The notes beneath the pieces are model-generated. The model worked only from the letters and a program-made list of their open reading frames with translations, searched no databases and was not told the DNA's origin. Of a DNA stretch of 64,000 nt, positions 57,681 to 59,429 are shown in pieces. Numbering within the stretch: position 1 is the stretch's first letter; every line of letters begins with the position of its first letter. This DNA is from Apus apus (Eukaryota; Chordata; Aves; Apodiformes; Apodidae), in NCBI RefSeq assembly GCF_020740795.1, contig NC_067286.1:1421990-1485989 (forward strand). Direction: 5' to 3'. Position numbers and translations under genes: made by a program.

Positions 57681-57760
57681 GGGAAGCGTTACAAGACTTC
57701 CCTGGAGACCGTGGGAACTCCGGATTCCAGCCGAGGCCGCAGTGAGAAGAAAACCATCAA
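57681..57760 (+). CDS. SYT7: SYT7 coding exon 3 (start of cytoplasmic linker)
   Basis: The acceptor (cccctctctgcag) precedes 80 nt reading [19 protein letters not shown] and then RSEKKTI plus two bases of a Lys codon, followed by donor gtaggt at 57761. This is the juxtamembrane linker of SYT7, the region where alternative linker exons are inserted in mammals. The next codons after the donor would be AAG TAG, so failure to splice here gives an immediate stop and a 72-residue membrane stub without C2 domains. Truncated forms of Syt7 have been described in mammals. The C2A and C2B exons are not in this window. Confidence 0.95.
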
Positions 57761-58563
57761 GTAGGTGCTAGGGGGAGGGGGAGAGGGGCACAGGGCTGCG
57801 GTGCCCGTGGGAGCCCATGGATCTGGCACAGCTGCAGCCCACTCAGCACCCTGATCCATCGTGGGTGCCCTGCCTGCCTAGGGACATGTGCTGGACTGGT
57901 GCTGGCAGCAGGGATGTCCCTCCTTGGGGACAGAGGTGGCTGTCCCTCTGCTCCCAGGGTGGAGGGTCTGGCAGAACCAGTTTGGCAGTATCTCTCTCCT
58001 GGGGGGCTGCTGGGGAGACCGAGCCAGGGGTGGGCCCACCATCGTGCCACAACATTGTCCCTTCCTGCTCCTCCTGCAGCTCCAAGCAGGTTGGGGTTTT
58101 CCCCCCCAGTGAGGGCAGAGATGTCCCCAAGTCCCCCAGCCCAAATGGGACAGGGGTTTCAGGAGACCAGGACAGCTGGCAGGTCTCTCCAGTCCCCTCG
58201 TGTGCCCCTCCTGGCTCTCCTGCAGAGTTGTGGGCATGATGTATGGAGCCATGGGGACCTCAGCATGGGTGTCCCCAGGGATGTCCAAGGGCTGGGCATG
58301 CAGACCTGAGCCCTGACCATCCTGCCCAGCCCACGTGGCTGGACCACAGGCACCAGGGACATGGTGGGAAGAGGAGAGCAGAGCTGGGAAGGTATCATGG
58401 CTATTGAAACCCCCACCTTGGCTGGCCTGGCTTCCTGCTTGGGGTGTTCTTGGGGTGCAGGAGTCTGAGGCTACCTCAGGCATCCCTCTGGGCCCAGCCA
58501 GCTGCTCCTGGCCAAGGGTACCTCCCCTCCTGGTGGCCCAGCACATTCCAGGCTCAACCTGGA
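57761..58563 (+). other. SYT7: SYT7 intron 3, cut by an assembly gap
   Basis: About 800 nt of intron with no recognisable alternative linker exon or C2 exon before the N run. The sequence simply stops at the gap. Confidence 0.7.
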
Positions 58564-58663
58564 NNNNNNNNNNNNNNNNNNNNNNNNNNNNNNNNNNNNN
58601 NNNNNNNNNNNNNNNNNNNNNNNNNNNNNNNNNNNNNNNNNNNNNNNNNNNNNNNNNNNNNNN
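58564..58663. other. assembly gap of exactly 100 N
   Basis: A run of 100 N. A round 100 is the usual placeholder for a gap of unknown size. On its left SYT7 is cut after exon 3; on its right DDB1 begins in the middle of the gene. The missing parts of both genes, and whatever lies between them, must lie in or be displaced from this gap. Confidence 0.97.
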
Positions 58664-59207
58664 TGGTGGGATACACAGGAGGGCACATCCTGTCAGTGAC
58701 CTCTTAGGGAGGGTTATTTTCTGGGAGGAGAAAGTGCTTAATCTTTCCATGCCAGGGTTCTGGCTAGTGCCAGGTGGAGATGCTGATACCAGCTCCTGAG
58801 GGATCTGTGGGAGCTGATAACAGGGTGGGATTTTGGGGTGGGCGATTCGTGCTCCTGGATATGGGGAGCTGCATGGTGTGGGGCAGCCATGTGGCTTCTC
58901 CCAGAGGGTTGGGGTTGGACAAGCAGTCGCAGGGTCCTCTCCTGAAGAGCCTGGTTCCTGGAGGAATGGGGGAAGTGTGGGAGCTGTGCCAGGCTCTCAG
59001 CTGGGAATTTCCTGCTGCTTGAGGTGGGAGATGCCTCAAAAAAGCACCTCCGTGGTGTTTGACTCCTGCTGGGAGCTGGGCAGGGAGCCCTGCCTCAGCT
59101 GAGGGGCCACAAGGGAGTCTCAAGTCCCACCTTGGGGGGGAGGTGGGTGTCTTCCTGGCACTAACAGCCCTGTCCCTGTCCCCTCTCCGTGGATGTCACC
59201 CCCTCAG
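58664..59207 (+). other. DDB1: presumed DDB1 intron upstream of the first visible exon
   Basis: No coding sequence for DDB1 residues 1-109 is seen here. The end contains a pyrimidine-rich acceptor region leading into the exon at 59208. Confidence 0.65.
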
Positions 59208-59429
59208 GATCGCATCGGGCGCCCCTCGGAGACCGGGATCATCGGGATCATCGACCCCGAGTGCCGGATGATCGGGCTGCGCCTCTACGATGGGCTCTTC
59301 AAGGTCATCCCCTTGGACAGGGAGAACAAGGAGCTAAAGGCCTTCAACATCCGCCTGGAAGAGCTCCAGGTCATCGATGTCAAGTTCCTCTATGGCTGCC
59401 AGGCCCCCACCATCTGCTTCGTCTACCAG
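59208..59429 (+). CDS. DDB1: DDB1 internal exon, about residues 110-183
   Basis: Between acceptor ...caccccctcag and donor gtacca, 222 nt encode [20 protein letters not shown] through [13 protein letters not shown], in phase 0 at both ends. This is part of beta-propeller A of DDB1, the large three-propeller adaptor that links CUL4-RBX1 to DCAF substrate receptors. It acts in nucleotide-excision repair (with DDB2), replication licensing and histone turnover. Compared with human, from memory, only two substitutions are noticed (Glu for Asp149 and Gln for His163). It is probably exon 4 of the gene. The first ~109 codons are missing upstream. Confidence 0.97.

What the first reader, a model, noticed from the sequence alone, without database searches (positions are those of the whole stretch)
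57681..59429. SYT7 and DDB1 are joined by a 100-N gap that hides most of SYT7, the DDB1 start and several genes
SYT7 is cut after exon 3 and DDB1 begins at about residue 110, both on the + strand, with only about 1.4 kb including the N run between them. In human these genes lie in the same relative orientation but are separated by LRRC10B, PPP1R32, SDHAF2, CPSF7, TMEM216, TMEM138, CYB561A3 and TKFC. The gap is therefore almost certainly of unknown size (or a wrong join), and automated annotation could create a false SYT7-DDB1 fusion or call all these genes lost.
Basis: partly seen in the sequence, partly recalled or inferred. Interest (0 to 1): 0.75.

Follow-up and report, generated by a model that had tools for sequence, protein, structure and literature searches.

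The report
Assembly gap between SYT7 and DDB1
In this bird-like genome a placeholder of 100 unknown bases stands where most of one gene, the start of another and very probably several whole genes should be, so the apparent closeness of SYT7 and DDB1 is most likely an ordinary assembly artefact and not a deletion or gene fusion.

Summary
Exactly 100 N lie at window 58564-58663, between SYT7 coding exon 3 (57681-57760) and the DDB1 exon that starts at about residue 110 (59208-59429). DDB1 residues 109-1140 follow in order. In the held genome (1.10 Gb, 110 contigs) no match at orthologue-like identity was found for the SYT7 C2A/C2B exons, DDB1 residues 1-107, TKFC, TMEM138, SDHAF2, CPSF7, CYB561A3, TMEM216 or LRRC10B: 7 of the 8 genes named. 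The PPP1R32 search was uninformative. Four of four control genes were detected. FEN1(-), TMEM258(+), DAGLA(-), SYT7(+), gap, DDB1(+), PGA(-), VPS37C(+) keep the human order as I recall it, so the join is probably right and the block unassembled. Each flank matches only itself. Splicing SYT7 exon 3 to the DDB1 exon shifts the frame and stops at codon 93, so that junction encodes no fusion protein. An ordinary artefact of low biological interest, but a useful warning for annotation and gene-loss tables.

The parts
43711..43741 (+). SYT7 coding exon 1 (MYLHPEAASAG, 31 nt, GT donor)
   Evidence: ATG and donor located by script; frame joins to exon 2
55612..55715 (+). SYT7 coding exon 2 (transmembrane segment)
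   Evidence: tblastn 87% to recalled human SYT7 residues 8-45; AG/GT borders
57681..57760 (+). SYT7 coding exon 3, last SYT7 exon found before the gap, ends in phase 2
   Evidence: tblastn match to SYT7 from residue 46; AG/GT borders
58564..58663 (.). Run of exactly 100 N, placeholder gap of unknown size (C6:1480553-1480652)
59208..59429 (+). First DDB1 exon present, from about residue 110, starts in phase 0
   Evidence: phmmer to solved DDB1 E 3.5e-45; AG/GT borders
61943..64000 (+). Further DDB1 exons in the window; the gene continues outside it to C6:1494024 (residue 1140)

Best explanation
The 100-N run is a scaffolding placeholder of unknown length. Two contigs, one ending in SYT7 intron 3 and one starting in the DDB1 intron before residue 110, were placed in correct order and orientation, and the stretch between them was not assembled. 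That stretch should hold the remaining SYT7 exons, the DDB1 start and the genes in between. Shown: the truncations, the 100 N, the failure to find the missing sequence in the held contigs, and the order of the neighbours in this genome. Inferred: that the missing DNA exists in the animal, that GC content or repeats prevented its assembly, and that its true size is tens of kilobases or more.
For: Exactly 100 N. SYT7 and DDB1 are each cut on the gap side, while DDB1 residues 109-1140 are all covered on the far side. SYT7 C2 exons, DDB1 1-107, TKFC, TMEM138, SDHAF2, CPSF7, CYB561A3, TMEM216 and LRRC10B gave no match at orthologue-like identity; what appeared is read as paralogues: 31 C2 matches of 27-62%, a CPSF6-like gene, b561 paralogues, a TMEM80-like exon and LRR proteins. 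Controls FEN1, TMEM258, VPS37C and SDHB were each detected in two or more pieces. Seven genes around the gap keep the recalled human order and orientation. Each tested flank (564 and 540 bases) matches only itself. A published bird assembly states that its scaffolder introduced gaps of 100 bp at joins (PMC7757076, passages). A turkey study has TMEM216, TMEM138, TKFC, DDB1 and CD6 among its positional candidates, so a turkey annotation holds these genes (PMC11026500, passages; positions not shown there).
Against: No reads or Hi-C data could be examined, so the missing DNA was not seen directly. GC at the edges (63% in the 500 bases on the left, 58% on the right) is high but not extreme, so the cause of the break is not established. 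PPP1R32 was not informatively tested. The searches can miss short or weakly conserved exons: the control search found 2 of the 3 VPS37C pieces that a local search found, and the 10-residue SYT7 exon 1 was not found. Sequence that is not among the 110 held contigs could not be searched.
Confidence: 0.94

Rival explanations
1. A real deletion in this lineage or individual removed the SYT7 3' part, the genes in between and the DDB1 start.
For: None of the 7 informatively tested genes, nor SYT7 C2 or DDB1 1-107, was found elsewhere in the held assembly.
Against: The breakpoint is an N run, not continuous sequence. Such a deletion would remove the DDB1 start and also CPSF7 and SDHAF2, a loss I judge hardly survivable (general knowledge, no call). 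The DDB1 exons after the gap remain strongly conserved: 18 of 22 tblastn pieces have 79-100% identity to human, and the other 4 (55-69%) probably run into introns.
Confidence: 0.03
2. The scaffold join is wrong: the two contigs are not neighbours, and the block lies in another place.
For: A 100-N gap by itself does not prove adjacency.
Against: FEN1, TMEM258, DAGLA and SYT7 on the left and DDB1, PGA and VPS37C on the right keep the recalled human order and orientation; the block was not found anywhere else in the held contigs.
Confidence: 0.03

Closest known systems
Fixed-length (100 N) scaffold gap in bird genome assemblies
   Same: Exactly 100 N at a join; PMC7757076 (passages) says its scaffolder introduced gaps of 100 bp at joins.
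   Different: Nothing in kind; here a whole cluster of genes appears to be missing at one gap. That this genome was scaffolded in the same way is not known.
False gene loss in assemblies (PMC9516821, passages)
   Same: Genes and exons absent because they were not assembled; missing exons are among the most frequent types in that study.
   Different: Here it is inferred from one assembly and conserved order, not from a second, better assembly.

Membership tests
Scaffold gap of unknown size | N run of a fixed conventional length | tested here: met
   100 N, the only N run of the window; the only other run within 264 kb is 240 N
Scaffold gap of unknown size | Sequence expected at the place is missing from both flanks | tested here: met
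   SYT7 ends after exon 3, DDB1 starts at about residue 110
Scaffold gap of unknown size | The missing sequence is not placed elsewhere in the assembly | tested here: met
   7 of 8 named genes plus SYT7 C2 exons and DDB1 1-107 not found; 4 of 4 control genes detected; PPP1R32 inconclusive; only the 110 held contigs searched
Scaffold gap of unknown size | Raw reads or Hi-C show unassembled sequence at the place | not testable with these tools
   no reads are held
SYT7-DDB1 gene fusion | Open reading frame across the junction of the two genes | tested here: not met
   exon 3 ends in phase 2, the DDB1 exon starts in phase 0; stop at codon 93
Genomic deletion | Continuous sequence across the breakpoint | tested here: not met
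   the place is an N run

The most novel reading that the evidence does not exclude
The lineage has truly lost the block from SYT7 exon 4 to the DDB1 exon before residue 110, or moved it to sequence absent from the held assembly (for example an unassembled small chromosome), so that SYT7 and DDB1 are broken at this place.
Probability: 0.03. Interest if true: 0.8.

Novelty: not a real feature. Interest (0 to 1): 0.1.

Why it matters
Gene-loss tables, synteny studies and automatic annotation of this genome could report up to eight false losses and two truncated genes (SYT7 without its C2 domains, DDB1 without its N-terminus). The gap should be treated as of unknown size. I see no new biology in it.

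Tried and rejected
A SYT7-DDB1 fusion was rejected: the exon junction is out of frame. Displacement of the missing block to another held contig was rejected. Overlapping or duplicated contig ends at the gap: each tested flank (564 and 540 bases) matches only its own place, and of the repeats listed in 56000-61500 (20 of 21 direct families and 20 inverted pairs) none over 31 bases joins the two sides. A TMEM216-like match at C6:1007093 was examined and is closer to TMEM80 (59% against 48% to TMEM216, both recalled sequences). The CPSF7 matches at C1:169.33 Mb (68%, 45% and 75% over three pieces) are read as CPSF6, and the best LRRC10B match at C1:169.21 Mb (46%) as LRRC10; both names rest on recall. 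With filters off, the whole CPSF7 query gave many proline-rich chance matches in the window; its RRM part, with the filter on, gave none in 264 kb. The Pfam profile of PPP1R32 gave nothing, but its control genomes gave nothing either, so it says nothing. Paper searches gave no listing that I could see to state the avian order of these genes (of the papers listed there only PMC11026500 was opened), and a search for the 100-N convention listed none.

Full report
Observation. The window has one N run, 58564-58663, of exactly 100 bases. The window is C6:1421990-1485989 of a held assembly of 1.10 Gb in 110 contigs; C6 is 66.46 Mb long. SYT7 coding exons 1 to 3 are at 43711-43741, 55612-55715 and 57681-57760, and read MYLHPEAASAG...EKKTI, ending in phase 2. 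The first DDB1 exon is 59208-59429 and matches solved DDB1 at E 3.5e-45. 1447 bases, N run included, lie between exon 3 and this exon.

What is on the far side. In 264 kb around the window (20 fetched stretches plus the window) DDB1 residues 109-1140 are found in order on the + strand at C6:1481194-1494024, in 22 pieces, 18 of them with 79-100% identity. No SYT7 exon after exon 3 was found there. DAGLA lies on the - strand at C6:1374048-1403956, a pepsinogen A-like gene on the - strand at 1504573-1507425 and VPS37C on the + strand at 1517910-1519216; the other eight of the eleven queries of that call, TKFC, TMEM138, SDHAF2, TMEM216, CYB561A3, the CPSF7 RRM, FEN1 and TMEM258, gave nothing in the 264 kb. 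FEN1 (-, 1.290 Mb) and TMEM258 (+, 1.293 Mb) lie just left of that stretch. This is the human order and orientation on chromosome 11 read backwards; the human order is recalled and comes from no call.

Is the missing part elsewhere? The SYT7 protein gives 33 matches in the whole genome: its exons 2 and 3 (79% and 69% over the matched stretches) and 31 others of 27-62% identity, which I read as other synaptotagmins and C2 proteins. DDB1 residues 1-183 find only the exon of residues 108-183. TKFC and TMEM138 find nothing while the DDB1 exon joined to the query as control is found. CPSF7 and SDHAF2 find, beside the control, only three pieces of a CPSF6-like gene on C1, and the SDHAF2 profile finds nothing. 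CYB561A3 and TMEM216 find, beside the control, seven matches of 29-50%, one of them closer to TMEM80. PPP1R32 by its Pfam profile finds nothing, but the control was silent too. So 7 of the 8 named genes were tested and not found, and 1 is in effect untested.

How sensitive were these searches? FEN1, TMEM258, VPS37C and SDHB, joined in one query, were each detected in two or more pieces, some of only 32-43 residues: 4 of 4 genes. But one of three VPS37C pieces known was missed, so short, weakly conserved exons can escape. Best-supported are therefore the absences of the strongly conserved SYT7 C2 domains and DDB1 start; the absences of TMEM216, CYB561A3 and LRRC10B are the weakest.

The gap edges. 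The 564 bases left and 540 bases right of the N run each match only themselves in the genome, so no held contig was seen to overlap these ends. GC is 63% and 58% in the 500 bases on either side and 57% in the window. A CR1-like repeat (recalled) lies about 1.2 kb to the right. Nothing at the edges shows why assembly stopped. The study of a bird-of-paradise assembly says that gaps of 100 bp were introduced where scaffolds were joined (PMC7757076, passages), and a study of four vertebrates describes false gene losses caused by GC content and repeats (PMC9516821, passages). A turkey study has TMEM216, TMEM138, TKFC, DDB1 and CD6 among its 95 positional candidates (PMC11026500, passages); it shows that a bird annotation holds them, but the passages give no positions.

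Mechanism and rivals. The best reading is a scaffold join in correct order and orientation with an unassembled block of unknown size (0.94). By recall of the human distance the block should be tens of kilobases or more; this is inference. A real deletion (0.03) is disfavoured because it would remove the DDB1 start, CPSF7 and SDHAF2, while the rest of DDB1 stays strongly conserved. A wrong join (0.03) is disfavoured by the order of seven genes. The feared fusion is not encoded by a direct splice: SYT7 exon 3 ends in phase 2, the DDB1 exon starts in phase 0, and the junction gives a stop at codon 93.

Verdict. It is an ordinary assembly artefact, useful to flag, of low biological interest.

Noticed in passing
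C6:1543393-1543632 (L007:7404-7643): A second N run, 240 bases, about 63 kb right of the first; its length is not the round 100, so it may be a sized gap or a withheld stretch. Its flanks were printed.
   Followed up: partly
window 51846-52454: An 18-base tandem array (about 32 copies) in SYT7 intron 1 lies in long overlapping stop-to-stop frames on both strands (445 and 458 aa), probably spurious because the unit is a multiple of three.
   Followed up: no
window 15446-15746 and 33567-33984: Tandem arrays of a 20-base purine unit (15 copies) and a 25-base C-rich unit (17 copies) between DAGLA and SYT7.
   Followed up: no
C1:169.21-169.34 Mb: LRRC10-like and CPSF6-like genes lie about 120 kb apart, mirroring LRRC10B and CPSF7 of the missing block; this looks like an old duplicated neighbourhood (names recalled).
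   Followed up: no
C6:1007093-1007299 (L048): An exon of the TMEM216/TMEM80 family, closer to TMEM80 (59% against 48%, recalled sequences), on the same chromosome as the gap.
   Followed up: partly
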